Assembly: GCA_003562475.1 (NCBI GenBank)
Contig: PWUU01000007.1
Coordinates: 1-64,000, forward strand
Length of the DNA stretch: 64,000 nt
Direction of reading: 5' to 3'
From: Dehalococcoidia bacterium
Lineage (GTDB): Bacteria; Chloroflexota; Dehalococcoidia; GIF9; AB-539-J10
This document shows, one piece after another, positions 16,185 through 64,000 of the stretch. The translations under genes were made by a program, and so were the position numbers. The notes below the pieces were generated by a model. It was given only the letters and a program-made list of their open reading frames with translations, did not search any database and was not told the DNA's origin. How positions within the stretch are numbered: position 1 is the first letter of the stretch; every line of letters begins with the position of its first letter.

Positions 16185-16267
16185 TGCCGAGGGGGGGATT
16201 CGAACCCACACTCCCTTGCGGGAAGCGGATTTTAAGTCCGCCGCGTCTGCCATTTCGCCACCTCGGC
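16185..16267 (-). tRNA. tRNA-Leu(TAA)
   Basis: Acceptor GCCGAGG pairs with CCTCGGC, A73 follows, anticodon loop CTTAAAA gives TAA, and the long variable arm TCCCGCAAGGGA marks a class II tRNA. Its 3' end points towards the integrase fragment. Confidence 0.95.
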
Positions 16268-16320
16268 ACAGGTCGGCTGGACGACCTCAAGGTCTGCGAG
16301 CTAACGTGGAAAACAATACA

Positions 16321-16393
16321 AGGCGGCGAGCGGATTCGAACCGCTGAATAGGGGTTTTGCAGACCCCCGCCTTAACCACTTGGCTACACCGCC
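16321..16393 (-). tRNA. tRNA-Cys(GCA)
   Basis: Acceptor GGCGGTG pairs with CGCCGCC, discriminator T73 as in tRNA-Cys, and the anticodon loop CTGCAAA gives GCA. Confidence 0.95.
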
Positions 16394-16416
16394 ATGTAGA
16401 GAGAGAAGAGAATTGG

Positions 16417-16488
16417 AGCGGAAGACGAGATTCGAACTCGCGACTTCCTCCTTGGCAAGGAGGCGTTCTACCACTGAACTACTTCCGC
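16417..16488 (-). tRNA. tRNA-Gly(GCC)
   Basis: Acceptor GCGGAAG pairs with CTTCCGC, T73, anticodon loop TTGCCAA gives GCC. Confidence 0.95.
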
Positions 16489-16537
16489 ACAGTCTTCATT
16501 GTACTGTCTCACGCACAGCTGTTCAAGGCAAGGGAAA

Positions 16538-16621
16538 TGCCGAGGGGGAGACTTGAACTCCCACGGGCTCACGCCCACCACCCCCTCAAGATGGCGTGTC
16601 TACCATTTCCACCACCTCGGC
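16538..16621 (-). tRNA. tRNA-Leu(GAG)
   Basis: Acceptor GCCGAGG pairs with CCTCGGC, anticodon stem CCATC/GGTGG with loop TTGAGGG gives GAG, and there is a long variable arm. Confidence 0.93.
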
Positions 16622-16625
16622 ATGG

Positions 16626-16699
16626 CAGGGGCGGCAGGATTCGAACCCACGACTCGCGGTTTTGGAGACCGCTGCTCTACCGGACTGAGCTACGCCCCT
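16626..16699 (-). tRNA. tRNA-Trp(CCA)
   Basis: Acceptor AGGGGCG pairs with CGCCCCT, discriminator G73 as in bacterial tRNA-Trp, anticodon loop CTCCAAA gives CCA. Confidence 0.95.
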
Positions 16700-16721
16700 A
16701 TGCACACTATTATCGTTCAAG

Positions 16722-16795
16722 TACCCCTGGGGCGACTCGAACGCCCGACACGCGGTTTAGGAAACCGCTGCTCTGTCCTGCTGAGCTACAGGGGC
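16722..16795 (-). tRNA. tRNA-Arg(CCT)
   Basis: Acceptor GCCCCTG pairs with CAGGGGT through a G1-U72 pair, anticodon loop TTCCTAA gives CCT. Confidence 0.92.
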
Positions 16796-16798
16796 TGG

Positions 16799-16871
16799 TG
16801 GAGATAGGGGGACTCGAACCCCCAACCTCCGCGATGCGAACGCGGCGCTCTCCCAGCTGAGCTATATCCCC
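16799..16871 (-). tRNA. tRNA-Ala(CGC)
   Basis: Acceptor GGGGATA pairs with TATCTCC and contains the G3-U70 pair that identifies alanine tRNAs; anticodon loop TTCGCAT gives CGC. Confidence 0.95.
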
Positions 16872-16974: not shown

Positions 16975-17589
16975 CTACGGGCCCCACTGCTCATACAGGA
17001 TGATCTCGCGTCTGCAGCGTGGGCACACCAAACTGATACTGTCTCCCCTGTCAAGAGGTCGCTCGGGATCGCGCGCCACAGGCGCCGCCAGACCAAGATC
17101 CTTGCTCAACAGCAACGCAAGGCCCATGGTTCCAAATGCCTTCGCGCCGAGCTTCCGTGCGACCCAACGCAGATGGTCGACTGTCGCGATTACCTCGCCA
17201 CACTCCTGGCAGATCAGCAGCTCCTTCTCCACATTGGAAACCGCAAGGCTGAGATCGTACGTACCTGTCTCATACTCATTGGTAAGTATGATCCCCTCCT
17301 CAGTGGTACAGTATCGATGACACTGGCCACAGAACACGCAGCGCCCATGATGTACGGTCATAGTTCGGACCCCATTCCCATCCTCAAGGACATCACAAAT
17401 GTCGATCGCCCGCGAAGGACAGACACGCGCGCACGCCCCACAACCGATGCACTCCTCATCCACAAACTTCGGTCTGCCGCGAAACGCCTCGGGGGCAATG
17501 ACGGGCTCGTAGGGATACCGCACCGTGTACGGTTTGCTGAAAAGAGACCGTATAGCCTCTCCGAGTTCACGAACCTTGGGTGTCCTCAT
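16975..17589 (-). CDS. Hydrogenase 4Fe-4S subunit, NuoI/HyfH-like, with C-terminal zinc-ribbon-like tail
   Basis: The last gene of the hydrogenase operon. It carries two [4Fe-4S] motifs, CIGCGACARVCPSRAI (from about residue 47) and CVFCGQCHRYCTTEEG (from about residue 84), as in NuoI and group 4 hydrogenase subunits that pass electrons to the small subunit. The C-terminal 90 residues are extra and hold two more Cys pairs, CQEC and CPRC, which may bind zinc or iron. It begins just before the NuoN-like gene ends, with a 3-base gap, and lies 100 bases before the tRNA cluster. Confidence 0.85.
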   Translation of the reverse strand: MRTPKVRELGEAIRSLFSKPYTVRYPYEPVIAPEAFRGRPKFVDEECIGCGACARVCPSRAIDICDVLEDGNGVRTMTVHHGRCVFCGQCHRYCTTEEGIILTNEYETGTYDLSLAVSNVEKELLICQECGEVIATVDHLRWVARKLGAKAFGTMGLALLLSKDLGLAAPVARDPERPLDRGDSISLVCPRCRREIILYEQWGP

Positions 17590-17592
17590 AAT

Positions 17593-19044
17593 CTAAGCTC
17601 CGATCAGAATGGCATTCGCTGCAGGCTCCAGCAGGTGTTGAATCACCCATGGAAACGCCAATCCAAGTGCCACACAGAACACCGCGAGCACCACCAACGG
17701 CGCAACCATGCTCACCGGCCCCTCTCGCACATTCTGAATAGTGTCCGGCAGCGCGCCGAAGAATACGCCAAGCTGATACTTGAGGAAATAGCCAATAGTA
17801 ATCACCGCGCCGATAGCGGCAACGACAGCAAAGCCAGTGTAGCCCGCATACACAGCAGCGACAATGATGAGCAGCTTGCTCCAGAAACCGCTGAACGGCG
17901 GACAACCGGTCACCGAAAAGAACCCTATGGCTGACGTGACGCTGGTGAACGGCATCCTGCTGTTCAGACCACCAAGAGCACCTATGTCCCTCGTTCCGGT
18001 CTGTCGTTCCACCGAGCCTGCGCCAAGGAAGAACAGCTCTTTGAACGCTGCGTGGTTCACGAGGTGGAAGAGTGCTCCAATCAGCGCAAGTGGCGTGCCC
18101 ACTGCGAGGCCCAGCAGCACATAGCCCATCTGGCTGATCGTACAGTATGCCAGCAAGCGTTTCATGTCGCTCTGTACAAGCGCAAGCAACGCACCCGCCA
18201 CAATCGATAGCGAGGCAATCAAGAGAATAATCGTGGCAAATACGCCGCCCGGAACAAATACGAGGTAGAGCAAGCGCATCAGCCCGTAGAGTCCAACAAC
18301 CTTGATGAAGATTCCGGACAACAGCGCAGATACAGGTGCAGGCGCCGTTGAGTGTGCGTCCGGTAACCATGCGTGGTACGGCACAAATGCTGCCTTGAGC
18401 GCAAACCCGGAGAGCAACAGAACTCCGGGCAGGCCCATCCCGGCGACTGAAGCCACATTCGCAGCAGCCATCTCGGCGAAAGACAGCGTGCCAACAAGTG
18501 CATAGGTAACACCGATGCCCGCGAGCAGCAGCAGCGTGCCCACAGTGCCGAGAATCTGATACTTGAAGGATGCCTCGAGGTACTCTCTACCCAGACCGTA
18601 CGCCACCAACGCATAGCACGCCAGCGCGGCAACTTCGATACCCACGTACATGTTGACGATGTCAGCGCCCAACACCACCATGTTCATGCCCGCAACCATC
18701 AAGGCAAACAGCACATAGTATCGAGGCCTGGCGGTATACGAACGCATGTAGGGTACGGAATACACGCACGCAAGGACACCACCCACCGCTATCACCAACA
18801 GCAACAGCACGCTGAGTGCATCGGCGGCGAGATGGATACCCAGAGGAGTGGGCCCACCCATGTTCCACGAGATGGAGGACCCGCCGAGCACAGGGCCGGC
18901 GACACTAACCGTAAGAACGAGCATCACGATCATCCCTGCATTGCAGAGTACATCGGAGGTTCGTTCCGAACCCCGGGAACTCACCGCAACGGCGAGTGCT
19001 GTCAGCAGGGGCACAACTACAAGCGCAGGAAGAACAGCACTCAT
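17593..19044 (-). CDS. Antiporter-like membrane subunit, NuoN/MrpD type
   Basis: A 483-residue membrane protein with about fourteen helices, one of two Mrp-type ion-pumping subunits in this operon. The proton_antipo_M core is visible: YVGIEVAALACYALVAYG with the conserved Glu, HAWLPDAHSTAPAPVSALLS in TM7-8, DMKRLLAYCTISQMGYVLLG with the conserved Lys, and GCPPFSGFWSK. It would move H+ or Na+ in step with electron transfer. Its ATG overlaps the stop of the NuoK-like gene (ATGA). Confidence 0.9.
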   Translation of the reverse strand: MSAVLPALVVVPLLTALAVAVSSRGSERTSDVLCNAGMIVMLVLTVSVAGPVLGGSSISWNMGGPTPLGIHLAADALSVLLLLVIAVGGVLACVYSVPYMRSYTARPRYYVLFALMVAGMNMVVLGADIVNMYVGIEVAALACYALVAYGLGREYLEASFKYQILGTVGTLLLLAGIGVTYALVGTLSFAEMAAANVASVAGMGLPGVLLLSGFALKAAFVPYHAWLPDAHSTAPAPVSALLSGIFIKVVGLYGLMRLLYLVFVPGGVFATIILLIASLSIVAGALLALVQSDMKRLLAYCTISQMGYVLLGLAVGTPLALIGALFHLVNHAAFKELFFLGAGSVERQTGTRDIGALGGLNSRMPFTSVTSAIGFFSVTGCPPFSGFWSKLLIIVAAVYAGYTGFAVVAAIGAVITIGYFLKYQLGVFFGALPDTIQNVREGPVSMVAPLVVLAVFCVALGLAFPWVIQHLLEPAANAILIGA

Positions 19045-19340
19045 CCCTTTAATCTCCTCATTTCACGGATATCAAGTGAACCGTACTTCTCGTGCAAGCG
19101 CACGGCAGTAACAATCAGCAGTACCACGACGGACGAACCACCAACCACCGCAATCAGACCCACCGACTGGGAGATGGCCACAACGGACGTGCCATCGCTG
19201 CCTGCGGCAACAACAAGACCAGCCACTCCCAGGACCATCAGGATCACTCCGAGCGCCATTTTCAGCACATTGACCTTCACAAGGATGCCGTAAAGGCCTA
19301 TCACGATGAGCAGTAGAGAGAGGTAAACCAGAGAGCTCAC
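19041..19340 (-). CDS. NuoK/MrpC-like membrane subunit
   Basis: A 99-residue protein with three membrane helices, the size and shape of NuoK, MrpC and the HyfE N-terminal part. Known relatives sit between antiporter-like subunits and help form the ion path. Starts ATG 19340 overlapping the upstream stop and overlaps the downstream start (ATGA both ends), so its translation is coupled to both neighbours. Confidence 0.8.
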   Translation of the reverse strand: MSSLVYLSLLLIVIGLYGILVKVNVLKMALGVILMVLGVAGLVVAAGSDGTSVVAISQSVGLIAVVGGSSVVVLLIVTAVRLHEKYGSLDIREMRRLKG

Positions 19341-19801
19341 TCATCCCTCCTTCCCGTCTTACGGAGCATCGCCCACACAGCAGCAGCGGCAGTAAGAATC
19401 ACAATGACCTCCCGTAGAAGCCCCATATGGCCGCTCACATATGTCTCTTCAACTCCCAGCGGAGTTAGTCCAATCAACACGGGCGCCACGAGGAAGGCAA
19501 CGATGGCGAACGCCACCAGTGCCCCGATCGCAAGTCCACCGGCACGGCCGGACAGCACCGAGGGAAGAGAGTCATATTCGCCGGTTCGGCGGAACCCCCA
19601 CTTGAATGCCATCATGAGCACGGCACCAGCCACAAATACACCAACGCCCACCTCGGCCGCACCTATGACGAGCATCCCAATCGCGAAAAACCCTAGAGCT
19701 GCGCCCAGGGCAATTATCGACGCTCTGGCCTGTCGCAACTCAAGCGCTGCAAGTCCCGCAACTGCCGTTAGTACTAATGGAATCAATGCTGGGCTGTCCA
19801 T
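19337..19801 (-). CDS. NuoJ/MbhD-like membrane subunit
   Basis: A 154-residue protein with about five helices, rich in Ala, Gly and Val, in the place where group 4 hydrogenase and Mrp operons encode NuoJ or MbhD/MbhE/MrpB-like proteins. The first part (ALELRQARASIIALG) resembles the DUF4040/MbhD motif. The second part may be a fused MrpB-like segment. It is 12 bases downstream of the NuoL-like gene. The exact family is uncertain. Confidence 0.65.
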   Translation of the reverse strand: MDSPALIPLVLTAVAGLAALELRQARASIIALGAALGFFAIGMLVIGAAEVGVGVFVAGAVLMMAFKWGFRRTGEYDSLPSVLSGRAGGLAIGALVAFAIVAFLVAPVLIGLTPLGVEETYVSGHMGLLREVIVILTAAAAVWAMLRKTGRRDE

Positions 19802-19813
19802 ACTGTTTACGTC

Positions 19814-21712
19814 CTACAAGGCGAGCAAGGCGATGATCAACACCACGACCACTGCCAGAACCACCCAAGCCACGTAAGTCGAGAGCCTCCCCGTGTGGAG
19901 CGAACTGAGTGCTCTTCCGACAGGAGGCGCCAGTGTTGCCAGCCTCTGGATATCGAATCGGCCCTTCTCCCCCCAGTTATATAGGGTCATCAGGCCCGGA
20001 TACTGCCGAATGCTGTCGTAGAACTGCGTGCCCAGCACTCGTGTATCAACAGTACCCCTCATACGGCCATATGGAGTGCTAAGGGACTCACCAGATCCTT
20101 CTCCAGAAGTCTCGCCACCAAGATATGCCGTTACCTTCCTAATACTTCGAGGCCTGGACAAGAGATAGATGGCGTATCCAATGAGCAGCGCAAGTACAAG
20201 AAGGAGCGAACCTGCCGTAGGACTCCAGAGGCCAGCAAGGGAGATGGCTTCCGGGAACCCGGGGAACTGCATGCCCACAGCAGGTCCAATGAAGTGAACG
20301 AGCGGTATCTGCGCGGCAACGCCGAACAGGACGCATAGAGTTGCAAGCACGGCAGGCCCAAACCTCATAGAGGCGCCAACTTCACTCACACGCGACAATC
20401 CACGCGGAGTTTCACCCAGGAACACTGCGTGGGCGAATTTCACAAACGAAGCCACAGACAATGCACTGCCAAACATCGCCGCAAGGAGGAACACCCAGTA
20501 GCGTCCAATCCCAGCCTCCACGATCCCCTGGTAGACCATCCACTTGGACACGAATCCATTCAAAGGAGGTATGCCGGATATGGCCAATGCAGCTATGGCA
20601 AAGGTCACGAACGTAAAGGGCATCACACGAGCGAGACCTCCCAACTTTGCTGAATCGGTGGTCCCTGTGCGCTTCTCCACAGCGCCTGTCGTCAGAAACA
20701 GACAACTCTTATAGATCGCATTATTGAGCATGTGGAACAAACCACCAGCGATACCAATGGGAGTGCCAGTGCCGATGCCGAGGATCATGTAGCCGACCTG
20801 TGACACCGCATGAAACGAGAGCAGCTTACGCAAATCGTGCTGAATCATGGCCATCACCACACCCGCCACAAGCGTAACCACGCCGATTATCATCAAGAGG
20901 ATGTTGAGCGAAAGCGGCACAGCGAACACGTCCAGCACCATTCGCGCGAGGAGATAGATGCCCAGGAGCTTGTCAATCGATGCGGGCAGCAACGCCATAG
21001 CCGAAGATGGCGCCACCTCGGCCATATCGGGAATCCAGCTATGCACAGGCATCGCACCAGCTTTGGACAAAGCTCCCACCAGCACAAGTACAAACGCAGC
21101 CACAGAGAGCGCCGAGGTAGCAGGCAACCCCACCCCACCCATCGTGAGCGTGCCGGTCTGGAGGAAGATCAGGCCAACACCCAGAATGAGCGCCAGGTCA
21201 GCGCCGCCAAGTATCAGCAAGCTCTTACTGGCTGAGCGCAGGACCCCGGCAGGGGCAGCATCTGGAGCGCCGATCGTAGTCAGCAGGAAGAGAGTCACGA
21301 GGATGAAGCCCCAGAACCCGACGAACAGGAGCCAGTTGTTCGCCAGCAAGGCACCGTTCGCAGCACCAATGCTCAACAGCAGGTAAGGATGGTACTCGCG
21401 CAAGCGCGGCCTGCCCTTCATGTAGCCCAGAGAAAACACCGTGACGAGCAGTCCGAACAGAGATACGAACATCACCATGAACCGGTTCAGTACGTCCATG
21501 CGAAGGTCCACAAGGTAGCCTTCGGTGAAACCAAGCGGCACCGCACGAAAAGAGTGCTCGGGTCCGAGGAGCACCAGGATGCTGAGTATGAAGACAGCCG
21601 ATGCCACAATCGTCCCGGCGACCTGGCGAAACCTCTCAGCCCTCGCAGGAATCGCAAAACCGATTGCGCCAGCAACCAGCGGCAGGAACACAACCCACGG
21701 AAGCATGGTCAT
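19814..21712 (-). CDS. Antiporter-like membrane subunit, NuoL/HyfB type
   Basis: The second, longer ion-pumping subunit: 632 residues, with the antiporter core (LLFVGFWGFILVTLFLLTTI; MPVHSWIPDMAEVAPSSAMA; DLRKLLSFHAVSQVGYMILG; GIPPLNGFVSKWM) and a long C-terminal part ending in a last helix (AWVVLAVVVVLIIALLAL). That is the NuoL/HyfB layout. ATG 21712 overlaps the stop of the large-subunit gene (ATGA); a longer frame from 21745 is not used. Conserved Lys and His residues in TM7-8 are visible. Confidence 0.9.
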   Translation of the reverse strand: MTMLPWVVFLPLVAGAIGFAIPARAERFRQVAGTIVASAVFILSILVLLGPEHSFRAVPLGFTEGYLVDLRMDVLNRFMVMFVSLFGLLVTVFSLGYMKGRPRLREYHPYLLLSIGAANGALLANNWLLFVGFWGFILVTLFLLTTIGAPDAAPAGVLRSASKSLLILGGADLALILGVGLIFLQTGTLTMGGVGLPATSALSVAAFVLVLVGALSKAGAMPVHSWIPDMAEVAPSSAMALLPASIDKLLGIYLLARMVLDVFAVPLSLNILLMIIGVVTLVAGVVMAMIQHDLRKLLSFHAVSQVGYMILGIGTGTPIGIAGGLFHMLNNAIYKSCLFLTTGAVEKRTGTTDSAKLGGLARVMPFTFVTFAIAALAISGIPPLNGFVSKWMVYQGIVEAGIGRYWVFLLAAMFGSALSVASFVKFAHAVFLGETPRGLSRVSEVGASMRFGPAVLATLCVLFGVAAQIPLVHFIGPAVGMQFPGFPEAISLAGLWSPTAGSLLLVLALLIGYAIYLLSRPRSIRKVTAYLGGETSGEGSGESLSTPYGRMRGTVDTRVLGTQFYDSIRQYPGLMTLYNWGEKGRFDIQRLATLAPPVGRALSSLHTGRLSTYVAWVVLAVVVVLIIALLAL

Positions 21713-22914
21713 AGGTCCAGCAGCCTCCTGGAACGGTGCGTGCAACCCGAATCAAGTTCCCTGGTGCGTGCCCACGACAACTCGAGCAGTTGCCGCTCAT
21801 CGAGTGTCCGGACCGATGCCCCCTCCTCGAGACGAACCACCCGGTTGGTGCAGCAATAGCAGGGGTCGATCGACGCAAGAATGATCATTATGTCGGCCAC
21901 CCGCTCTCCCATGAAACGTGAGCGGAATGATGGCAAATTGGCGTACGTGGGCGCCCTGACCTTCAGTCTATAAGGACAGTTGGTGCCGTCCGAGCGCACA
22001 TAATGGAAGCATTCGCCACGAGGCGCCTCTTCGACGCCAATACCCTCACCCGGGGGAACCTCCAGTATCTCCGTGAGAATCGGGCCTTCAGGCATCTGAT
22101 CGACACACTGCCGAATGATCTTGACCGACTCAAGAGTCTCCAGAAGTCTCACAACAGCCATGGACATCACGTCTCCGTCCGACTGGGTGATAACCTTCCA
22201 GTCGACGTTACCATAGGCAGCGTACGGAAAGTCACGCCGGACATCGATGTCCACACCAGCGCTCCTGGCCACCGGGCCAACAGTACACCGGCTCATCGCA
22301 TCCTCACGGCTCATCTTGCCTACACCACGCAACCTGGCGAGTATTACCGGGTCATCCATCACCGCACCGATGAACATGTTCACCTTCGGCTCCAACTCGT
22401 TCATCGCCGTGACTATTCCCTTGTACTCGGACGGCTTGATGTCCTGACGCACACCACCCGGCTTCAGCATCGCGTACGACTGCCGATTGCCCGAGATACG
22501 CTCGAACAGATCGCATACCAGTTCGCGATATCGCCACGCCCACATCCACACAGTGTGATAGCCAATGTAATGACCGGCAAGGCCAAGCCATAACAGGTGA
22601 CTGTGAATCCGCTCGAGCTCCGCAACGATGCTGCGTATGTACTTCGCCCTCTCCGGAATCTCGATCCCGACGAGATCTTCAACCGCGTTGCAGAATGCAA
22701 TGGGATGCGATGTCGAACAGATACCGCAGATGCGCTCGACCAGGAACACCACCTGGTCATACGTCTTGCTCTCGGCTATCTTCTCCACGCCGCGGTGCAT
22801 GTAGCTGGTGCGCCAATCGATATCGACGACGCGTTCGCCTTCAACCACCACTCGAAAGAGTTCAGGCTCTTCGATGAGAGGATGGTAGGGGCCGACCGGA
22901 ATTGTTGTTCTCAT
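21709..22914 (-). CDS. Group 4 [NiFe] hydrogenase large subunit (NuoD/HycE/EchE type)
   Basis: The catalytic subunit. Both pairs of nickel-binding cysteines are present: RICGICSTSHP near residue 62 and DPCYCCTNR near residue 355, the CxxC forms of true hydrogenases that NuoD lacks. YHPLIEEPELFRVVVEGERV and GPYHP at the start are typical of the NuoD/HycE family. The 401-residue size fits group 4 enzymes with a separate NuoC-like subunit. A tail of about 40 residues follows the second motif. It should reduce protons or oxidise H2. No hyp maturation genes are in the window. ATG overlaps the upstream stop (ATGA). Confidence 0.93.
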   Translation of the reverse strand: MRTTIPVGPYHPLIEEPELFRVVVEGERVVDIDWRTSYMHRGVEKIAESKTYDQVVFLVERICGICSTSHPIAFCNAVEDLVGIEIPERAKYIRSIVAELERIHSHLLWLGLAGHYIGYHTVWMWAWRYRELVCDLFERISGNRQSYAMLKPGGVRQDIKPSEYKGIVTAMNELEPKVNMFIGAVMDDPVILARLRGVGKMSREDAMSRCTVGPVARSAGVDIDVRRDFPYAAYGNVDWKVITQSDGDVMSMAVVRLLETLESVKIIRQCVDQMPEGPILTEILEVPPGEGIGVEEAPRGECFHYVRSDGTNCPYRLKVRAPTYANLPSFRSRFMGERVADIMIILASIDPCYCCTNRVVRLEEGASVRTLDERQLLELSWARTRELDSGCTHRSRRLLDL

Positions 22915-23420
22915 TTCGTCCCCTTGCGCAATATATGTTCCCGTATCTGTGCCAGTTCCTCTTCGGTACGATACGGATACTTTCCACGATGCTCTTTCCT
23001 GTAAGGATATACTCCTTCGGGCCAGTCATCTCCAAGCAGGAACCTGACTGGATTGGGATGACCGACGAACTCTACTCCAAACAGATCCATTATCTCCCGC
23101 TCAAAGTACTCGGCGCCATCGATCAGCGGCGTGATGGAGTCAACATGCGGATCGGGCATACTTACCACCGTCCTCACCGTCACGATCTTTCCCAACCGGC
23201 CGAAGGAGAAGTGATACAGCAACTCCATACCGGCCCGTGTCTCGAGGGCGGTGATGACAATCAGCCTTGCACCAAGATTGCTGAACAGAAAACCAGCGAC
23301 ATCCTTAACGATGCCCGACTTTACGCTGACATATACTCGCGCATCCGAGCGCTCTTCTATTTCGCCGATGCCTTCGGCAAATCTCACTTGGAGAGTCTTT
23401 ACGGGATCCACGTTGTTCAC
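22911..23420 (-). CDS. Hydrogenase NuoC-like (30 kDa) subunit
   Basis: A 169-residue protein with the 30-kDa family pattern ALETRAGMELLYHFSFGR, then EREIMDLFGVEFVGHPN and FLLGDDWPEGVYPYRK. In complex I and group 4 hydrogenases it binds the large and small subunits near the quinone or NiFe cavity. The start is GTG 23420 with TAGGAG before it. The stop overlaps the next start. Confidence 0.88.
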   Translation of the reverse strand: MNNVDPVKTLQVRFAEGIGEIEERSDARVYVSVKSGIVKDVAGFLFSNLGARLIVITALETRAGMELLYHFSFGRLGKIVTVRTVVSMPDPHVDSITPLIDGAEYFEREIMDLFGVEFVGHPNPVRFLLGDDWPEGVYPYRKEHRGKYPYRTEEELAQIREHILRKGTK

Positions 23421-23427
23421 CTATCTC

Positions 23428-23865
23428 CTAGATCTTGGCAAGTGCCTTGACGACGCCGTCGATCATGGCTTCAGGCTTCGGGGGACAGCCCGGCACATAA
23501 ACATCCACAGGGATAACTTTGTCCAGCGGCCCAATGACGTGATAGCTGCCCTGGAAGATTCCGGTGCTGCATCCACACGCTCCAAGCGCCACCACTACGC
23601 ACGGCTTCGCTATCTGTTCGTAAACGTGCATCACACGCGGAAGAGTTTGGACGGTGATTACCCCGGTCACCATCAGCACATCCGCATGGCGCGGAGATCC
23701 AATAAGGGTGATACCGAAGCGCTCGACGTCGTATTTTGGGGTGAGTATATCAAGCAACTCGATGTCACAGTTGTTGCATGAACCTGTGTTCAGATGGAAC
23801 GCCCAAGGAGATTTCTTGAGGCCCCACCTGGCCAGTTTGCCCAATTGCTTTCCGTCTATTTCCAT
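23428..23865 (-). CDS. Group 4 [NiFe] hydrogenase small subunit (NuoB/HycG type)
   Basis: A 145-residue subunit that holds the proximal [4Fe-4S] cluster next to the NiFe site. Ligand motifs are SCNNCDIELLD near residue 30, GACGCSTGIF and VPGCPPKPEAMIDG, the NuoB/HycG/EchC pattern. It lies 7 bases before the NuoC-like gene and 14 bases after the NuoH-like gene. Confidence 0.92.
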   Translation of the reverse strand: MEIDGKQLGKLARWGLKKSPWAFHLNTGSCNNCDIELLDILTPKYDVERFGITLIGSPRHADVLMVTGVITVQTLPRVMHVYEQIAKPCVVVALGACGCSTGIFQGSYHVIGPLDKVIPVDVYVPGCPPKPEAMIDGVVKALAKI

Positions 23866-23879
23866 TGTCTTGCGTCTCT

Positions 23880-24812
23880 TTACAACCCGAACACTGCAAG
23901 CAGCATCCCGACCAGGGAGAGGATAAGCACCGGTCCCCAGAAGAACCTCAGGGCCTGGTCGATGCGCAGGCGCGGGTTCGTATTCTTAATCAGAATGAGC
24001 ACAACGAGAATGGCAACAAACCAGAGTATCGCCCATGGAGTCCATGCAGATGTCAAGAACAGTGTAACCAGCAGAATTGGCAACACGCAGTAGAGCATGG
24101 CCTTAGTCAGCTTGAACGCTGCAAATGGGGGGCCGGAGTACTCGGTATAGGGTCCTGCGATCAGCTCGCACTCGGCTTCAGGAATATCGAATGGCCCAAC
24201 TCCCAGTTTCGCCGGCACGTAAATCAACGCCACAACGAAGGCGATCACAGTCGAGAGTCCCTGGGTGAGCATCGGGCCACCCGCCTGCTGATAGGCGACC
24301 ATTCCGCCAAGAGAAAGGATGCCGCCGTTCTTCACTACGAGGGTCAGTACCGCAATCAGGAATGACGCTTCGTAGGCGAGCATCAGCTTCATCTCGCGAC
24401 TTGCACCGATACCCGCAAACGGATTGCGTGACGCAGAACCTCCTACAATGAGAACCACTGCCGGAATGTAGAGGAGGTAGATCACCACAATCAGGTCGCC
24501 CACGAAGCCGCTCTGGGGATGGATACTGGCCATCCAGATGATAGTCGAAACCACTACCACCGCAGCGAGCCCTATGAACGGTGCGCTGAGAAAGGTAAAG
24601 CGGGGGCTTCCCTCAACGACCGTGGTCTCCTTACTCATGAGCTTCACCACATCCGCGAACGGCTGGTACCACGGAGGTCCCATGCGCCACTGCAGGCGCG
24701 CGCTCACCTTGCGATCGATCCAGGTCGCAACAAGCCCTATCAGGACCGTGAATACAAATCCGGGAAAGATCAGGACGAAGCCAATGTACGTCAGTACATC
24801 CATAAGCGACAC
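23880..24812 (-). CDS. NuoH/HyfC-like membrane subunit
   Basis: A 310-residue protein with eight or so helices that anchors the hydrogenase module to the membrane arm. Family motifs: WIDRKVSARLQWRMGPPWYQ after the first helix, GVGPFDIPEAECELIAGPYTEYSG in two parts around residues 210-235, and FLTSAWTPWA. Relatives form the link between the electron-transfer and the ion-pumping parts. GTG 24812 has GGAG before it. Confidence 0.92.
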   Translation of the reverse strand: MSLMDVLTYIGFVLIFPGFVFTVLIGLVATWIDRKVSARLQWRMGPPWYQPFADVVKLMSKETTVVEGSPRFTFLSAPFIGLAAVVVVSTIIWMASIHPQSGFVGDLIVVIYLLYIPAVVLIVGGSASRNPFAGIGASREMKLMLAYEASFLIAVLTLVVKNGGILSLGGMVAYQQAGGPMLTQGLSTVIAFVVALIYVPAKLGVGPFDIPEAECELIAGPYTEYSGPPFAAFKLTKAMLYCVLPILLVTLFLTSAWTPWAILWFVAILVVLILIKNTNPRLRIDQALRFFWGPVLILSLVGMLLAVFGL

Positions 24813-25292
24813 TTATACTCTCCTGAAGAACGGATGACGGCCCGTGATGCTTGCGCCTATCATCAGGCTCTTCTCGCCAATCTCATCGGCTTCCTCGAAG
24901 GTAAGCGCGCCCGACGGGCATGACATCACACATGCGGGCAGCATTCCCTCCGCAACTCTTGCCGCACAAAGATCACATTTGCATATGATATATGACTTAA
25001 TATCGGGCTCGATCACTCCGAACGGACACGCCACAATACATGAGCCACAGCCGCTGCAGAGCATATTCATGCGTTTGATTGCGCCCGAGTCCAGCTTCCT
25101 GATCGCATCCTGAGGACACGACGCCAGACACTGCGCCTCCTCGCAGTGACGGCAGATGAACGGCAAGCGCACATCCTCACGAAGCTCACCATAGCCGATG
25201 GTCGGTCTCTGGTCGCTGTGCGAGTAGTGGCAGGCAGCCGAACACGTGCGGCACGCGATGCAACGGTCGATGTTGACGAAGACCTTCTTCAT
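24813..25292 (-). CDS. Four-cluster ferredoxin-like electron-transfer subunit (HycB/HydN type)
   Basis: A 159-residue iron-sulfur protein with sixteen cysteines in four [4Fe-4S] sets: CIACRTCSAACHYSH, CRHCEEAQCLASCP, CSGCGSCIVACPFG, and CKCDLC with CVMSCPSGAL. HycB, FdhB and HydN proteins have this plan and link a molybdopterin enzyme to a hydrogenase. The ATG at 25292 overlaps the stop of the molybdopterin-like gene (ATGA), so it is probably its direct partner. The longer upstream frame lies inside the neighbour and is not used. Confidence 0.9.
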   Translation of the reverse strand: MKKVFVNIDRCIACRTCSAACHYSHSDQRPTIGYGELREDVRLPFICRHCEEAQCLASCPQDAIRKLDSGAIKRMNMLCSGCGSCIVACPFGVIEPDIKSYIICKCDLCAARVAEGMLPACVMSCPSGALTFEEADEIGEKSLMIGASITGRHPFFRRV

Positions 25293-27052
25293 TGCTGTTG
25301 TTTCCTGTACACCCGCACGCTCGCGGGGCCGGTAGAGAACCACCCATCACGACCGGCCTTCCAGGAGAATAGTCCCCGCGCCGCCACGTCATGGCTCGGC
25401 ACCGCCGCCACTCCCGTGCACAACCTGTCCGTGACCCGCGCACAGAGTTCCACCTCCACCTCCTGTGCAGCAACGATCACGCGTTCGCCATCGCTGATGC
25501 CACGTGTGGCAGCATCCCCAGTACTGATCTCGACAAATCCAGCCGGGAACAACTCCGCAGCCCACGTAATCCACCGGGTAATGCTACCCGCACCCGAGTG
25601 CGCCGTCGCGGGCAGCGTGATAAGTACCAGTTCCTCACCGGTGGCAGCCGGCAGTTCTTCCGTGATGGAGGCAAGACGCATAGGCCACTCAGAATCCGAA
25701 ACCTCAAATGAGACGTCGTCAACCGTGCCGCCGGCGTCGCGACTCGGCTGCGTGCGGGTTGTGGCCAACGTCGTCTCGAGCATAGATACTACATCAACGA
25801 GCGTGCGACACCCCCAGGATGGCGCCCCGATGGACTTCCACTCGAAGGTTGTACCGTCGAAGAGGGCGGCAGAACCATCAGACTCCAGCCACGATGCGCC
25901 AGCCAGTACCACGGACGAAGCGGCCTCTATCTGACCTTTGAACAGCGAAAAGGAGGCGGTGAGGTCCAGTTCCGATACCGCTTTGGAGAGCGTCTTCGAT
26001 GGGAACGCCTCCAGAATATCCGCACCGAAGCTGAGCAGGGCGCGATACTTGCCGGCCTCAAGGTCGGCGACCACGGTGGAGATGGCCTTCCACCTGTTTC
26101 TGGCAACAACCTCCTGAGCCCCACGCACATTGCCGCCCGATGGGAGCAGGATACACGACTTCTGATCCTCCGCTGTCCCGGCAAGAAGACCTGCCAAACG
26201 ACCGACCAGCGCGACGTCGGTCATGCCACGCGCGGGTGGAGCGACAACAACCGCAGCCCTGTTGGCCAAAGCGAAGGCCTGAGACATCCGGGCGATGACA
26301 TCACCGGATACGCCAGAAGCCTCAAGAAGCACTGCATCATCAGTCGAGTCCAGCCAGCCCGGCGCATTGCCCTGCAGCTTCCCGGAGTCCTTCAGCGCCT
26401 TCAGCAAACACGCGAGCACGAGCGCCTCCGTCCCGGGGCGATTCTGCACATGCTCACTCGCAAACCATGCGGTGTTGCTTCGCCGGGGGTCAACAACAAA
26501 GAGGCTGTTGCCTCTTGCCGTGTACTTGGCATCGAGGACCACTCTCGCGAGCACCGGGTGAGTGAAGAACACATCACCGAATACGATGATACAGTTGGCC
26601 TCCTCAAGGCTGGAGGCATCAGCACTTCCACCTGCCAGGACGAGAGGCCAATCCTGGGGCTCGAACATACATGACACCGACCGGGTACCCAACATGCCTG
26701 CCAGCTGCCCTATGGCCTCAAGCTCCTCGGTGCTGTGGGTAGGGTCGGTTACTAAAGCGATAGCCTCCGACCCGGCCCCCTCGATCACCTCCAGCACGGC
26801 TGAGGCCAGTCGAGCCGTCGCCGCCTCCCACGATGTCTCTCGCAGCACACCATTGTTCCGTACAAGCGGTGTAGCCACCCGCTGGTAGTGGTTCAGGAGT
26901 TCAGTACCATAGAGTCCTCTGGCACAAAGACGCGCACCGTGTGGCCCGCGGTTCGCACAGAACTCTGGACCTGCAACCGCCTCGCCTTTCGCGCGAAACG
27001 CGATGTCACAGCCCAGCGGGCACAACAGGCACTTTGACTCTCGTGTATTCAT
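25289..27052 (-). CDS. Molybdopterin-oxidoreductase-like protein (FdhA/NuoG-like)
   Basis: A 587-residue protein. The N-terminus has a [4Fe-4S] site CLLCPLGCD with a fourth Cys in LCARGLYG, then the bis-MGD-type fold: GNSLFVVDPRRSNTAWFA, RPGTEALVLACLLKAL, and a C-terminal domain with GISDGERVIVAA and VPSHDVAARGLFSW. It is shorter than formate dehydrogenases (about 700) and the usual Sec/Cys-His active-site pair is not evident; a SVSCMFEPQDWP stretch is the nearest Cys. It may be a formate-type enzyme with altered site or a NuoG-like structural subunit. ATG 27052 is preferred over TTG 27067. Confidence 0.75.
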   Translation of the reverse strand: MNTRESKCLLCPLGCDIAFRAKGEAVAGPEFCANRGPHGARLCARGLYGTELLNHYQRVATPLVRNNGVLRETSWEAATARLASAVLEVIEGAGSEAIALVTDPTHSTEELEAIGQLAGMLGTRSVSCMFEPQDWPLVLAGGSADASSLEEANCIIVFGDVFFTHPVLARVVLDAKYTARGNSLFVVDPRRSNTAWFASEHVQNRPGTEALVLACLLKALKDSGKLQGNAPGWLDSTDDAVLLEASGVSGDVIARMSQAFALANRAAVVVAPPARGMTDVALVGRLAGLLAGTAEDQKSCILLPSGGNVRGAQEVVARNRWKAISTVVADLEAGKYRALLSFGADILEAFPSKTLSKAVSELDLTASFSLFKGQIEAASSVVLAGASWLESDGSAALFDGTTFEWKSIGAPSWGCRTLVDVVSMLETTLATTRTQPSRDAGGTVDDVSFEVSDSEWPMRLASITEELPAATGEELVLITLPATAHSGAGSITRWITWAAELFPAGFVEISTGDAATRGISDGERVIVAAQEVEVELCARVTDRLCTGVAAVPSHDVAARGLFSWKAGRDGWFSTGPASVRVYRKQQQ

Positions 27053-27067
27053 TTCGAATACCTGCAA

Positions 27068-27892
27068 TCACGTCCACGCATCGGGAAAATCGCGTATCTG
27101 GTCATACGTAAACACCGGACCATCCTTGCACACATAGTACGTCCCTAGGCGGCAGTGGCCACACATACCCATTCCACAACTCATGTTCTTCTCCATCGAG
27201 AAGTACATATGCTCGGGCTTGAATCCCATCTTCTGCAGGATGGGCACCATAAACCGGAGCATGATGGGCGGCCCGCATCCCACCGCAATTGCGTTCGGAA
27301 CATCACCAATGTCCGCAGGCTTCATGATGGTCGTGACCACACCCACGTTGTGACGCCATGATTCATCAGCGATGTCCACCGTATAGACCACATCCATCCG
27401 GGGGTCCGTCTCCCACGACAGACAGCGATCCTTATACATCCTGAGTTCCGGATTACGGGCTCCATAGCGGAGCACGATGCGCTTATACTGGTCTGCTTCA
27501 TGAAGCAACGCCAGTAGAACCGCGCGCATGGGAGCCATGCCTACACCACCACCTACCACGTAGATCTCGCGTCCTTTGAAATAGTCCATCGGATACTGAT
27601 TGCCAAACGGACCGCGCACCAGGGCGGTGTCGCCTGGACGTGCGTTATGCAGCGCCGTTGTATTCTTACCTCGCGGCTGAATCTGCACGCTCACCTCAAA
27701 CGTATCTGGCTCGAAGCATGAAGACGACACGCCGAACGGCGATTCGCCGATGCCTGGCATGCCCACCATCACAAACTGTCCTGGGGCGAACACGAGGGGC
27801 TCGATCGGCTTCAGCACATACGTCTTGATAGCCGAGTTCTCATCAATGATGTCGAGGATCGTCGCCTCCGCCGGGACGTACGGGTTATTCAC
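27068..27892 (-). CDS. FAD/NAD(P)-binding oxidoreductase, sulfhydrogenase gamma (HydG)-like
   Basis: A ferredoxin-NADP-reductase-type protein, 274 residues from GTG 27892 (GGAGGA eight bases upstream). It has an FAD domain (APGQFVMVGMPGIGESPF), an NAD(P) domain (IYVVGGGVGMAPMRAVLLAL), and a C-terminal [2Fe-2S] motif (CGMGMCGHCRLGTYYVCKDG). This is the order of HydG in archaeal sulfhydrogenase and AsrB. It would bring NAD(P)H electrons into, or take them from, the complex. It overlaps the upstream gene by 8 bases. Confidence 0.88.
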   Translation of the reverse strand: MNNPYVPAEATILDIIDENSAIKTYVLKPIEPLVFAPGQFVMVGMPGIGESPFGVSSSCFEPDTFEVSVQIQPRGKNTTALHNARPGDTALVRGPFGNQYPMDYFKGREIYVVGGGVGMAPMRAVLLALLHEADQYKRIVLRYGARNPELRMYKDRCLSWETDPRMDVVYTVDIADESWRHNVGVVTTIMKPADIGDVPNAIAVGCGPPIMLRFMVPILQKMGFKPEHMYFSMEKNMSCGMGMCGHCRLGTYYVCKDGPVFTYDQIRDFPDAWT

Positions 27893-28919
27893 CTCGACTC
27901 TCCTCCAACTCATAGATAACCTGTCGCATGTCGATGTTCGCCAGACACGCTTCGATGCACCGGCCGCATCCGGTGCACGCGATCATATCGAACCTGGTCG
28001 GGTAGAAGTCGAACTTCTTCACATACTTGTTCTTGAACCGGTCGTTCCCTGTTGCCCTGGCGGTGTGCCCTCCCCCGCAGCGCGTATAGCTACGAAGGTA
28101 GCAGAAATCCCATACGCGGATGCGCTCGTTGCCGTCACCCCTCTTCTGATCAAAGAGGACAAAACAGTGGCAGGTCGGACAAATCGCCAAACAGGCAGCA
28201 TCCTCACGACACCTGCCGACATACTTATTGTATGCAGGCGATTCGAACCCCTCTTTCACAAGTTGAATTGATGATCGTTTCGTCTCAAACTTCCGATTCT
28301 GCTCCACTATCGCTTGCCGGGTCCGCTCCCGGTTCTCATCGCGTTCCGCGACCTGCTCCGCGGTTGCCGAGGTTATGGCAATTCCTTCCACCTTCAGCGC
28401 ATCCTCACCTCTTGGGCTGCCGACTTCCAGCACGAGCCCATCCGATATGCTGGCTACCGCAAGGTCGTAGTAGCCTTCAGGATAGGGTTTCATGCCAAGA
28501 AGTGTGCAGAAGCAATTAGGGGACGGATCAGAACAGTCGGCACCCACCACCAGCGCTTTCTCGCGACGCGACACCCAGAACGGATCACGCGGTTCGGATC
28601 CTGCGAACGTCCGGTCAAGACAATCCAGCGAGCGCAGGTCGCAGTTCTTCGCCCCGACAATGATGAAGCCCGGCTCTTCGTCGAGGAATCTCGTATCGCC
28701 TGGATACGTTGCGACGATCTCGCGAACGCGGAAATAGAACGTCTTCAGCGGTTCAACGGCCCTAATGCCGTCAAGCTCGGCACACGCCGACGACTCCGGC
28801 GACAGCTGCACCCAATGGCGGTGTCCTGTCCTCGATGAAGGAATGTACACCAACGTGTCGGCAGCCCAGGCACGTATCAGACGCTCAAAATCAGATGAGG
28901 GAATAAAGAGTGGTGCCAT
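27885..28919 (-). CDS. Iron-sulfur subunit, sulfhydrogenase beta (HydB)/AsrA-like
   Basis: A 344-residue electron-transfer protein, first gene of the operon. The N-terminal region opens MAPLFIPSSDFERLIRAW and contains VGAKNCDLRSLDCLDR and VGADCSDPSPNCFC typical of the family. Two C-terminal cluster sites follow: CREDAACLAICPTCHCF and CTGCGRCIEACLANID. In the first, the residue where relatives have the second Cys (CxxC) is Asp. ATG 28919 is chosen over a TTG at 28970 because it starts at the conserved N-terminus. It partners the HydG-like flavoprotein. Confidence 0.87.
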   Translation of the reverse strand: MAPLFIPSSDFERLIRAWAADTLVYIPSSRTGHRHWVQLSPESSACAELDGIRAVEPLKTFYFRVREIVATYPGDTRFLDEEPGFIIVGAKNCDLRSLDCLDRTFAGSEPRDPFWVSRREKALVVGADCSDPSPNCFCTLLGMKPYPEGYYDLAVASISDGLVLEVGSPRGEDALKVEGIAITSATAEQVAERDENRERTRQAIVEQNRKFETKRSSIQLVKEGFESPAYNKYVGRCREDAACLAICPTCHCFVLFDQKRGDGNERIRVWDFCYLRSYTRCGGGHTARATGNDRFKNKYVKKFDFYPTRFDMIACTGCGRCIEACLANIDMRQVIYELEESRGE

Positions 28920-29031: not shown

Positions 29032-29061
29032 ATTATAGTTGGGCGTTCAAACAGATGTCAA
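29032..29061 (-). promoter_or_regulatory. Near-consensus promoter of the hydrogenase operon
   Basis: On the minus strand TTGACA (29056-29061), 18 bases, then TATAAT (29032-29037). Both hexamers are perfect. It lies about 110 bases before the HydB-like start, so the leader is long enough for control. Confidence 0.8.
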
Positions 29062-29136: not shown

Positions 29137-29553
29137 CTATGTCGAGCGGAAATCGACCTGAACTTCCGGATTCTCGGATTTCAATATGGCCTCTACTTCC
29201 TGCTGGACAACCTGGTCTGTGATAGGCTCAACCACCGAAACCGGCTGCCCGGATTCCGTACGGGATGACTTCCAATCTGTCACATAGCCAAGTACAGTCG
29301 CGTAGCGGAATACACGATTGCCACAACACACCGTGTCGACCACAGCATCCGTATGTAAGTAGAGCACTTCCCGGTCACGATGACGAATGGTGCGTTCTTG
29401 CCACTGCACACTTACCCCATAACCGGTATGGGCATCAGTACTCTCCGATAGATGCACATATCGCGCCATGTTCCCATCCTCGGGACTCCGCACCCGGCAA
29501 TCCTGCACGACACGACACCCGACCCACTGTGCGGGTTGAGGAGATGTTCTCAC
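29137..29553 (-). CDS. Conserved-looking protein of unknown function, 138 residues
   Basis: I do not recognise the family. The protein is soluble, with a beta-rich centre (YGVSVQWQERTIRHRDREVL, then DTVCCGNRVFRYATVLGYVT) holding one Cys-Cys pair, and a helical end (TDQVVQQEVEAIL). Its GTG start overlaps the stop of the cNMP-binding gene (GTGA), so the two are translated together. A shorter start at an internal Met (MARYVHLSE) is also possible. It ends 76 bases upstream of the hydrogenase promoter. Confidence 0.6.
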   Translation of the reverse strand: MRTSPQPAQWVGCRVVQDCRVRSPEDGNMARYVHLSESTDAHTGYGVSVQWQERTIRHRDREVLYLHTDAVVDTVCCGNRVFRYATVLGYVTDWKSSRTESGQPVSVVEPITDQVVQQEVEAILKSENPEVQVDFRST

Positions 29554-30008
29554 TTGCTATGCAGTAACATGAACATCTGTTGACGTGTGGCAGCCAACTG
29601 GTCCGCTGCGATGCGTACCACCTTTTCCATCACCCGTGCACAGATGTCGGGATGGGTTTCACAAAGCTTCCGCATTACCGCGCCGTCAAGAACCACCAGG
29701 TGTGTGTCAACCGTCGCTTTCGCAGTGGTCATATATCGGTAAGGCGGCACGAGCGCTTCCCATCCAAAGACTTCGTTTCGACGCAGCGAGGCGACCTGTA
29801 GATGCGTATCAGGAACGGCTTCGATGTCGAGATTGACCCGACCGGAGTCCACGACGTACATCTGCGTGCTCTCAGCATTCTCGGTAAAGATGACCTGGCC
29901 GGAGGGGTATTCCTGGACTCGAATCACGCTCTCCCGAACCATCTCCAGCTCTGCATCACTTATTCCTTGAAAGACTTCAACCTCTTTAAGACGCTCAATA
30001 GTCACCAT
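29550..30008 (-). CDS. Lone cyclic-nucleotide-binding-domain protein
   Basis: A 152-residue protein that is only a cNMP-binding beta-roll: VEVFQGISDAELEMV, YPSGQVIFTENAES, YVVDSGRVNLDIE and a C-terminal helix ending at residue 152. The HTH domain of Crp/Fnr proteins is absent. It may bind a nucleotide or another small ligand and act on a partner protein rather than DNA. It sits second in a three-gene set just upstream of the hydrogenase operon. ATG at 30008 has GGAGG upstream. Confidence 0.83.
   Translation of the reverse strand: MVTIERLKEVEVFQGISDAELEMVRESVIRVQEYPSGQVIFTENAESTQMYVVDSGRVNLDIEAVPDTHLQVASLRRNEVFGWEALVPPYRYMTTAKATVDTHLVVLDGAVMRKLCETHPDICARVMEKVVRIAADQLAATRQQMFMLLHSK

Positions 30009-63047: not shown

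Positions 63048-64000
<953 letters not shown>

What the first reader, a model, noticed from the sequence alone, without database searches (positions are those of the whole stretch)
16975..28919. Thirteen-gene operon joining a group 4 [NiFe] hydrogenase to a sulfhydrogenase-like NAD(P)H module and a molybdopterin-type subunit
The set has all NiFe ligands, two antiporter-like pumps, a four-cluster ferredoxin, a HydB/HydG-like pair and an FdhA/NuoG-like protein, nearly all with overlapping stop-start codons. The combination suggests one complex that trades electrons among NAD(P)H, ferredoxin or formate and H2 while pumping ions. I do not know this exact gene set as a described enzyme.
Basis: partly seen in the sequence, partly recalled or inferred. 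Interest (0 to 1): 0.72.

Follow-up and report, generated by a model that had tools for sequence, protein, structure and literature searches.

The report
Membrane hydrogenase with NAD(P)H input module
This is a thirteen-gene operon from an uncultured sediment bacterium for a membrane-bound nickel-iron hydrogenase that carries an NAD(P)H-binding module and a burnt-out formate dehydrogenase; a similar gene combination was noted in print in 2019 in another phylum, and its function is still only a prediction.

Summary
In detail: 13 uninterrupted genes fill 99.98% of 28919-16975 (minus strand), at most 15 bp apart. The host is a Dehalococcoidia MAG. The large subunit keeps both CxxC pairs and falls in a clade (100/100) with Omnitrophota, Bipolaricaulota and Zixiibacteriota, apart from Mbh and HycE/HyfG. 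HydG lies upstream in 20 of 20 clade loci whose contig reaches it. Most likely this is one complex: a reversible H2:NAD(P)+ oxidoreductase coupled to ion pumping.

Corrections: (1) a formate role is unlikely: the FdhA-like protein lacks the Cys/Sec-His site in 7 of 7 rows covering it and is absent in 14 of 14 Omnitrophota/Bipolaricaulota loci that could show it; (2) of two pump subunits, g9 has Gly in place of the TM5 Glu; (3) the Dehalococcoidia form lacks MnhB and MrpE/F/G, which relatives have; (4) PMC6349859 (2019) already lists a group 4 hydrogenase with Mrp, an unclassifiable molybdopterin protein, CooF, AsrA and AsrB in Saganbacteria. Verdict: new variant of a known, uncharacterised kind. 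Electron donor, direction and ion are untested.

The parts
29032..29061 (-). promoter match TTGACA-18-TATAAT (12 of 12), 112 bp before g1
   Evidence: consensus match only
27885..28919 (-). g1, HydB/ShyB/AsrA-like iron-sulfur subunit (344 aa)
   Evidence: Fer4_22 9e-24; ShyB 6.7e-45, HydB 2.6e-38, AsrA 5e-30, all below the curated cut-offs; SHI beta 9nez_B 6e-36; one cluster reads CxxDxxCxxxC in this genus
27068..27913 (-). g2, HydG/AsrB-like FAD/NAD(P)H/[2Fe-2S] subunit (281 aa)
   Evidence: NAD_binding_1, FAD_binding_6, DHODB_Fe-S_bind; SHI gamma 9nez_C 5.6e-47 over residues 10-277; AsrB 2e-58 below cut-off
25289..27052 (-). g3, FdhA-like molybdopterin-fold protein without the catalytic Cys/Sec-His; keeps CxxCxxxCx27C (587 aa from ATG)
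   Evidence: Molybdopterin and Molydop_binding; Fdh-alpha 146 bits against cut-off 666; active-site alignment; dN/dS 0.15 and 0.17 in two comparisons
24813..25292 (-). g4, HycB/CooF-like protein with four [4Fe-4S] motifs (159 aa from ATG)
   Evidence: Fer4_11 etc.; Cys positions
23880..24812 (-). g5, NuoH/HycD-like membrane anchor
   Evidence: NADHdh 8e-64
23428..23865 (-). g6, hydrogenase small subunit (NuoB-like)
   Evidence: Oxidored_q6 4.6e-30
22911..23420 (-). g7, NuoC-like 30 kDa subunit
   Evidence: Complex1_30kDa 5e-24
21709..22914 (-). g8, [NiFe] large subunit with CGIC, DPCYCC and a C-terminal tail
   Evidence: Complex1_49kDa 3.6e-69, NiFeSe_Hases 1.4e-17; MbhL 6cfw_L 2e-83, HycE 7z0s_E 5e-80; tree
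19814..21712 (-). g9, NuoL/HyfB/MrpA-like subunit, TM5 Glu replaced by Gly (632 aa from ATG)
   Evidence: Proton_antipo_M 2e-47; alignment
19337..19801 (-). g10, small membrane protein in the MbhD/MbhE (MrpB) position
   Evidence: no Pfam match above cut-off; position and relatives
19041..19340 (-). g11, NuoK/MrpC-like
   Evidence: Oxidored_q2 8.5e-13
17593..19044 (-). g12, NuoM/MrpD-like antiporter subunit with TM5 Glu and TM7 Lys kept
   Evidence: Proton_antipo_M 1e-67; alignment
16975..17589 (-). g13, HycF/NuoI-like protein: two [4Fe-4S] motifs and a CxxC...CxxC C-terminus
   Evidence: Fer4_7 2.9e-9; Cys positions
29550..30008 (-). g0, stand-alone cNMP-binding-domain protein associated with the operon; part in the complex unproven
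   Evidence: PF00027 1.5e-13; same place upstream in L044, L045, L043; a two-domain form between g1 and g2 in L094

Best explanation
[quoted passage not shown] Proposed path: NAD(P)H <-> FAD and [2Fe-2S] in g2 <-> [4Fe-4S] clusters of g1 <-> (in Dehalococcoidia the single cluster of g3) <-> four clusters of g4 <-> two of g13 <-> proximal cluster of g6 <-> Ni-Fe site of g8. The reaction drives, or is driven by, ion movement through g5, g10-g12 and perhaps g9. It would be a reversible ion-coupled H2:NAD(P)+ oxidoreductase: H2 release from NAD(P)H when H2 is scarce, or H2-driven NAD(P)+ reduction at the expense of the ion gradient. g3 is a formate dehydrogenase that lost catalysis and now serves as wire or scaffold, much as the FdhA-like part of NuoG does in complex I (recalled). 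Shown by sequence: gene set, Ni-Fe ligands, clade, conserved order, loss of the g3 active site, absence of MnhB/MrpEFG, Gly for the TM5 Glu of g9. Inferred: single complex, electron path, NAD(P)H as partner, ion coupling, protons rather than Na+ in this variant.
For: Minus-strand operon with at most 15 bp between genes and one strong promoter match. The large subunit and 20 homologs form one side of a branch at 100/100. HydG is present in 20 of 20 loci whose contig reaches its place (window, L139 and 18 loci, L048 only in part; contigs of L046, L047 and L050 stop short), and HydB/HydG were found in 1 of the 59 other loci (L071), whose contigs vary in length. HydG matches the solved sulfhydrogenase-1 gamma subunit over residues 10-277 of 281, with FAD, NAD and [2Fe-2S] domains. 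NAD(H) link: a Rex-type repressor (PF06971 plus CoA_binding) is encoded just before g1 in Omnitrophota L056 and, by similarity, L057, and a Rex-receiver fusion precedes the similar Oligoflexia set. Ni-Fe function: both CxxC pairs and a C-terminal tail in 20 of 20 clade loci with a complete C-terminus; HypD and HypE-type (AIRS-domain) genes near g1 in 7 of 10 Omnitrophota loci; HycI-type peptidases in the host genome. g3: no Cys/Sec-His in 7 of 7 rows, while a true FDH of the same genome has HCARLCHAP.
Against: No biochemical, proteomic or transcript data. NADH and NADPH cannot be told apart from sequence here. The free energy from NAD(P)H to H2 is small (recalled standard potentials about -320 and -414 mV), so pumping in that direction needs low H2. 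HydDB labels the loosely defined group 4g as putatively ferredoxin-coupled, and g4/g13 could also take electrons from ferredoxin. g9 lacks the TM5 Glu. One cluster of g1 has Cys replaced by Asp in this genus. Rex was found in only 2 of the 10 Omnitrophota loci, and a recalled Rex-site pattern matched near g1 in 1 of 14 loci scanned, 1.6 kb upstream in L058.
Confidence: 0.62

Rival explanations
1. Ferredoxin is the main donor (Mbh-like) and the HydB/HydG arm is a second outlet or inlet: reduced ferredoxin enters at g4 or g13 and electrons are shared between H2 and NAD(P)+, or ferredoxin and NAD(P)H are used together (confurcation).
For: g4 and g13 carry six [4Fe-4S] motifs; HydDB lists 4g as putatively ferredoxin-coupled; PMC6349859 proposed an Mbh-like role for the Saganbacteria set; more energy is available from ferredoxin (recalled).
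Against: The same g4-type subunit is an internal relay in formate hydrogenlyase (recalled); HydG-type flavins are not known to bifurcate (recalled); no ferredoxin-docking evidence was looked for.
Confidence: 0.22
2. The 13 genes are one transcript but make two enzymes: a hydrogenase (g4-g13) and a soluble HydB/HydG(/FdhA-like) NAD(P)H:acceptor oxidoreductase.
For: HydB/HydG-type pairs serve other enzymes, such as sulfhydrogenase and Asr (names); the pair is absent from 58 of 59 non-clade loci as far as their contigs go.
Against: Co-occurrence and adjacency throughout this clade in three phyla; HydG lies directly beside g4, the expected docking ferredoxin, when g3 is absent.
Confidence: 0.08
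3. Formate hydrogenlyase: g3 oxidises formate.
For: Fdh-alpha is the best family of g3; position beside a HycB-like protein.
Against: Catalytic Cys/Sec-His missing in 7 of 7 rows; 146 bits against a 666 cut-off; g3 absent in 14 of 14 Omnitrophota/Bipolaricaulota loci that could show it.
Confidence: 0.03
4. Sulfur or sulfite reduction by the HydB/HydG (AsrA/AsrB) pair, with H2 as donor.
For: AsrA/AsrB homology and the sulfhydrogenase name.
Against: No AsrC-type siroheme subunit among the 13 genes (the rest of the genome was not searched for one); scores below the Asr cut-offs.
Confidence: 0.05

Closest known systems
Enigmatic group 4 hydrogenase of Saganbacteria RX5A (PMC6349859, passages read)
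   Same: Hydrogenase subunits, Mrp-like subunits, unclassifiable molybdopterin protein, CooF, AsrA and AsrB in one region; nearest relatives given as Zixibacteria and Omnitrophica, which are among the nearest relatives here.
   Different: Gene order, supplement and alignments of that paper were not seen, so identity of the two sets is inferred; active-site loss, Mrp reduction and the g9 change are not mentioned in the passages read; other phylum.
Mrp-linked group 4g hydrogenase of Omnitrophota (PMC8542988, 12 of 22 passages seen)
   Same: Same phylum as ten of the loci here, Mrp-linked; perhaps overlapping sets (not tested).
   Different: That text treats it as an Mbh-type enzyme; the passages seen mention no HydB/HydG module on it.
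Mbh (group 4d), P. furiosus 6cfw
   Same: NuoB/C/D/H/I-like core and Mrp-like membrane subunits (recalled for Mbh; large subunit compared).
   Different: Separate clade; no HydB/HydG; the host's own Mbh-like paralog on C124 has MrpE/F/G and MnhB, missing here.
Formate hydrogenlyase (group 4a), E. coli Hyc/Hyf
   Same: HycB-, HycD-, HycE-, HycF- and HycG-type subunits (annotation); FdhA-type protein beside the HycB-like one (recalled for E. coli).
   Different: g3 has no formate site; HydB/HydG present; other clade.
Sulfhydrogenase 1 HydB/HydG (9nez) and anaerobic sulfite reductase AsrA/AsrB
   Same: Same two protein families.
   Different: Scores below the equivalog cut-offs; encoded with a membrane group 4 hydrogenase instead of a group 3b enzyme or AsrC.
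Respiratory complex I
   Same: NAD(P)H module, FdhA-derived protein, NuoB/C/D/H/I-like core, antiporter-like arm.
   Different: Ni-Fe ligands kept; HydB/HydG in place of NuoE/NuoF; g3 scores closer to FdhA (146 bits) than to NuoG (63-68 bits).

Membership tests
Group 4 [NiFe] hydrogenase | NuoD-like large subunit with both CxxC pairs | tested here: met
   CGIC and DPCYCC; families
Group 4 [NiFe] hydrogenase | Ni-Fe site actually built, H2 activity | not testable with these tools
   indirect only: C-terminal tail, hyp genes in relatives, HycI peptidases
HydDB group 4g | assignment by the HydDB classifier | not testable with these tools
   HydDB is not on hand; PMC8542988 uses 4g for Mrp-linked Omnitrophota enzymes
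Mbh (group 4d) | large subunit in the MbhL clade | tested here: not met
   MbhL groups with the C124-type paralogs at 100/98, apart from this clade at 100/100; MbhL is a long branch there
Mbh (group 4d) | complete Mrp module with MnhB and MrpE/F/G (definition recalled) | tested here: not met
   MrpE/F/G in 0 of 5 Dehalococcoidia contigs that span g12-g13 and in 9 of 9 Omnitrophota/Bipolaricaulota
Formate hydrogenlyase / formate dehydrogenase | Cys or Sec followed by His in the FdhA active site | tested here: not met
   0 of 7 rows that cover it; L047 does not reach it
Formate hydrogenlyase / formate dehydrogenase | curated Fdh-alpha score | tested here: not met
   146 bits against 666
Sulfhydrogenase HydB/HydG | homology to beta and gamma subunits | tested here: met
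   9nez_B 6e-36, 9nez_C 5.6e-47
Sulfhydrogenase HydB/HydG | NCBIfam equivalog cut-offs | tested here: not met
   HydB 132 against 750, HydG 165 against 650
Anaerobic sulfite reductase | AsrC catalytic subunit in the set | tested here: not met
   none among the 13 genes
Complex I-type proton pump subunit (g9) | TM5 Glu of antiporter-like subunits (position recalled) | tested here: not met
   Gly in 16 of 16 Dehalococcoidia and Omnitrophota rows, Glu in 3 of 3 Bipolaricaulota rows
Complex I-type proton pump subunit (g12) | TM5 Glu and TM7 Lys (positions recalled) | tested here: met
   15 of 15 true g12 rows; four further rows of that alignment were g9 hits and are not counted

The most novel reading that the evidence does not exclude
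A separately assembled counterpart of complex I that still makes or uses H2: a Ni-Fe core, one canonical antiporter-type pump, a HydB/HydG module in the place of NuoE/NuoF, and an FdhA that lost catalysis independently of NuoG and became a wire. It would be an NAD(P)H-coupled, ion-pumping [NiFe] hydrogenase (I recall no characterised one), with a Dehalococcoidia version that lacks the Mrp sodium-exchange subunits and so may have changed from Na+ to H+.
Probability: 0.35. Interest if true: 0.72.

Novelty: new variant of a known kind. Interest (0 to 1): 0.46.

Why it matters
If the NAD(P)H link is real, these uncultured sediment bacteria can trade NAD(P)H and H2 directly against an ion gradient, which changes energy budgets assigned to such hydrogenases when they are annotated as ferredoxin-fed Mbh. 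The set also offers a further case, beside NuoG, of a formate dehydrogenase turned into an electron wire or scaffold, and a natural comparison (with and without g3, with and without MrpE/F/G) for asking what those subunits do.

Tried and rejected
Formate hydrogenlyase: rejected after the active-site alignment. Sulfite reductase: rejected for lack of AsrC among the 13 genes. Plain Mbh membership: rejected by tree and Mrp content. AlphaFold of g3 from a 7-row alignment gave mean pLDDT 57; the Foldseek matches to FDH, Nap and NuoG (50 listed of 1596, TMq 0.35-0.48, rmsd 9.9-24.1) agree with the family scans but were not used as evidence; the second folding job was not used. A scan with a recalled Rex-site pattern over 14 loci gave one distant match. 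A viral-contig scan with g3 found no relative. NADH against NADPH preference was not settled. Synonymous divergence is near saturation in many genes, so dN/dS (two comparisons) is only used to say that g3 is under weaker but real constraint. The placement of the clade beside HycE-type enzymes has weak support (87/50) and is not claimed; in that tree the chosen outgroup was not one side of a branch and long branches meet.

Literature: nine paper queries were answered. PMC6349859, PMC5037454, PMC8542988, PMC7382037 and PMC11227167 were seen as passages; every other paper was seen only as a search listing and not opened, so another description may exist among them. Of what I saw, PMC6349859 alone gives this component list. 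Preprints and most subscription journals are not in the library.
Full report
OBSERVATION. Thirteen genes run on the minus strand from 28919 to 16975 with no internal stops; they cover 99.98% of the interval and no gap exceeds 15 bp; 6 of 12 junctions overlap. Using starts shared with orthologs or suggested by their lengths, g3 begins at 27052, g4 at 25292 and g9 at 21712. A 12-of-12 sigma70 match lies at 29061-29032, 112 bp before g1 (consensus only, and the number of promoter-like sites in the stretch equals the shuffled mean).

WHERE IT COMES FROM. The window lies on contig 9 of a 2.46 Mb, 133-contig assembly, completeness 95, contamination 8.7. The contamination figure means that single contigs could be foreign, but the operon is complete on one contig in two same-genus genomes (G002, G005), in two pieces in a third (G003), cut by contig ends in four more of the genus or family (G006, G029, G031, G034), and all 13 genes (g1 in part) lie on one contig of a genome from another family of the class (G111, L139).

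DISTRIBUTION. Among 61 genomes searched as own and relatives, 8 (own included) hold an ortholog at 73% identity or more, some on broken contigs. Among 294 genomes drawn from the class, 3 (own included) match at E up to 1e-170. One scan of named genome contigs returned 80 of 89 confirmed loci; 21 of the 80 are close homologs (best segment 56% or more): 6 Dehalococcoidia, 10 Omnitrophota, 4 Bipolaricaulota, 1 Zixiibacteriota. Nine confirmed loci were not shown and the scan used two short patterns, so other phyla may be missed; no row is titled Saganbacteria or Margulisbacteria.

TREE. With 64 large-subunit rows (31 of 95 left out by hand; careful mode) the window and 20 of these loci form one side of a branch at 100/100, in 100% of 200 bootstrap trees. 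MbhL groups with the Dehalococcoidia C124-type paralogs at 100/98. HycE and HyfG group with two Desulfurococcales-type rows and the Oligoflexia locus L071. The order of these clades is weakly supported, and the outgroup was not clean.

GENE ORDER. HydB-HydG-(g3)-g4-NuoH-small-30 kDa-large-NuoL-like-...-NuoK-MrpD-...-g13 is conserved in Chloroflexota, Omnitrophota and Bipolaricaulota; the 3.2 kb Zixiibacteriota contig shows only NuoH to NuoL-like. HydG is present in 20 of 20 loci whose contig reaches it (window, L139, and L044, L045, L048 in part, L049, L051-L061, L094, L122, L123); L046, L047 and L050 end earlier. g3 is present in 8 of 8 Dehalococcoidia loci that reach its place (window, L044-L048, L094, L139; L046 and L047 in part) and in 0 of 14 Omnitrophota/Bipolaricaulota loci that show both HydG and g4, where those two ORFs lie within 100 bp or overlap. 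PMC6349859 reports a molybdopterin protein also in Saganbacteria, so g3 may not be peculiar to Dehalococcoidia, and gain or loss cannot be told apart. Among the 59 other loci, one (L071, Oligoflexia) has a shorter FdhA-like protein, HydB and HydG beside a HycE-type hydrogenase: a second joining of the same modules or an old shared one.

WHAT CHANGED IN THIS VARIANT. (a) g3: the Fe-S motif CxxCxxxCx27C is kept in the window, but the place of the catalytic Cys/Sec and His reads EPQDWPL, SPNDREL and the like in 7 of 7 rows that cover it, while a true FDH on contig 41 of the same genome reads HCARLCHAP. It is the least conserved cytosolic subunit (64% where the large subunit has 95%; 55% where it has 85%), yet dN/dS is 0.15 and 0.17, so it is still under constraint. 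(b) Mrp module: MnhB is present in 11 of 11 and MrpE, F and G in 9 of 9 Omnitrophota/Bipolaricaulota loci that span the places, and MrpE/F/G in 0 of 5 Dehalococcoidia loci that span g12-g13 (window, L044, L045, L047, L139), where the two genes lie within 3 bp or overlap. The Mrp names rest on Pfam matches in L053 and L058 and on similarity elsewhere. The host's own Mbh-like paralog on C124 has these subunits. That MrpE/F/G serve Na+ exchange is recalled, so a change to protons is an inference. (c) g9: the TM5 Glu is Gly in 16 of 16 Dehalococcoidia and Omnitrophota rows and Glu in 3 of 3 Bipolaricaulota rows and in the two E. coli Hyc and Hyf rows; g12 keeps Glu and Lys in 15 of 15 rows (the naming of these positions is recalled). 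(d) g1: in three rows of the window's genus (window, L044, L045) one cluster motif reads CxxDxxCxxxC; the 15 other clade rows aligned and L071 read CxxCxxCxxxC.

FUNCTION. The large subunit has all four Cys ligands and a C-terminal tail after the second CxxC in 20 of 20 complete clade loci, the sort that a peptidase removes after nickel insertion (recalled); HycI-type peptidases are in the genome, and HypD and HypE-type genes lie near g1 in 7 of 10 Omnitrophota loci. So an active hydrogenase is likely. HydG carries FAD, NAD and [2Fe-2S] domains and matches solved sulfhydrogenase-1 gamma nearly end to end. Rex-type regulators lie just upstream in 2 of 10 Omnitrophota loci and, fused to a receiver domain, in L071, which fits NAD(H) control, although only one distant Rex-like site was found in 14 loci. 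The most economical reading is a reversible H2:NAD(P)+ complex coupled to an ion gradient. Ferredoxin as main or additional donor remains possible.

KNOWN OR NEW. PMC6349859 (passages) describes for Saganbacteria RX5A a group 4 hydrogenase with Mrp-like subunits, a molybdopterin protein that could not be classified, CooF, AsrA and AsrB, nearest to Zixibacteria and Omnitrophica, and guesses an Mbh-like role. PMC8542988 (12 of 22 passages) calls Mrp-linked Omnitrophota enzymes group 4g; HydDB leaves 4g uncharacterised (PMC5037454, passages). Nine answered paper searches brought up no other paper that I could see to hold this component list, and no biochemical test of it, but most listed papers were not opened.

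Noticed in passing
window 63048-63944 and L126 549-2931: NfnL/NfnS-like pair (NADH-dependent ferredoxin:NADP+ oxidoreductase type, named from recall) at the window's end, continuing on contig 9: a possible link between NADH, NADPH and ferredoxin pools in the same organism.
   Followed up: partly
L025 (contig C124) and L026 (contig C27): Two further group 4-type large subunits with Ni-Fe cysteines in the same genome; C124 is Mbh-like with MrpE/F/G/B and MnhB.
   Followed up: partly
L001/L128/L130 (contig C41): Large [NiFe] hydrogenase subunit (PF00374, 508 bits) with a HycI-type peptidase and, about 4 kb on, a formate dehydrogenase above the curated cut-off (872 bits).
   Followed up: no
L131 (contig C42): FDH-like protein just under the Fdh-alpha cut-off (638 against 666 bits) whose active-site segment reads GSRLYNS, without Cys or His.
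   Followed up: no
L071 2985-7218: Oligoflexia locus: Rex-receiver fusion, 406 aa FdhA-like protein, HydB and HydG directly before a HycE-type group 4 hydrogenase.
   Followed up: partly
window 29550-30008; L094 3857-4732: cNMP-binding-domain protein without another Pfam domain, tied to the operon in Dehalococcoidia; in L094 a two-domain form lies between g1 and g2.
   Followed up: partly
window 27885-28919 (g1): Asp in place of one cluster Cys (CxxDxxCxxxC) in the window, L044 and L045 only; might give a cluster that loses an iron or has a shifted potential.
   Followed up: partly
window 16183-16871: Cluster of seven tRNA genes on the same strand, starting 103 bp after g13.
   Followed up: no
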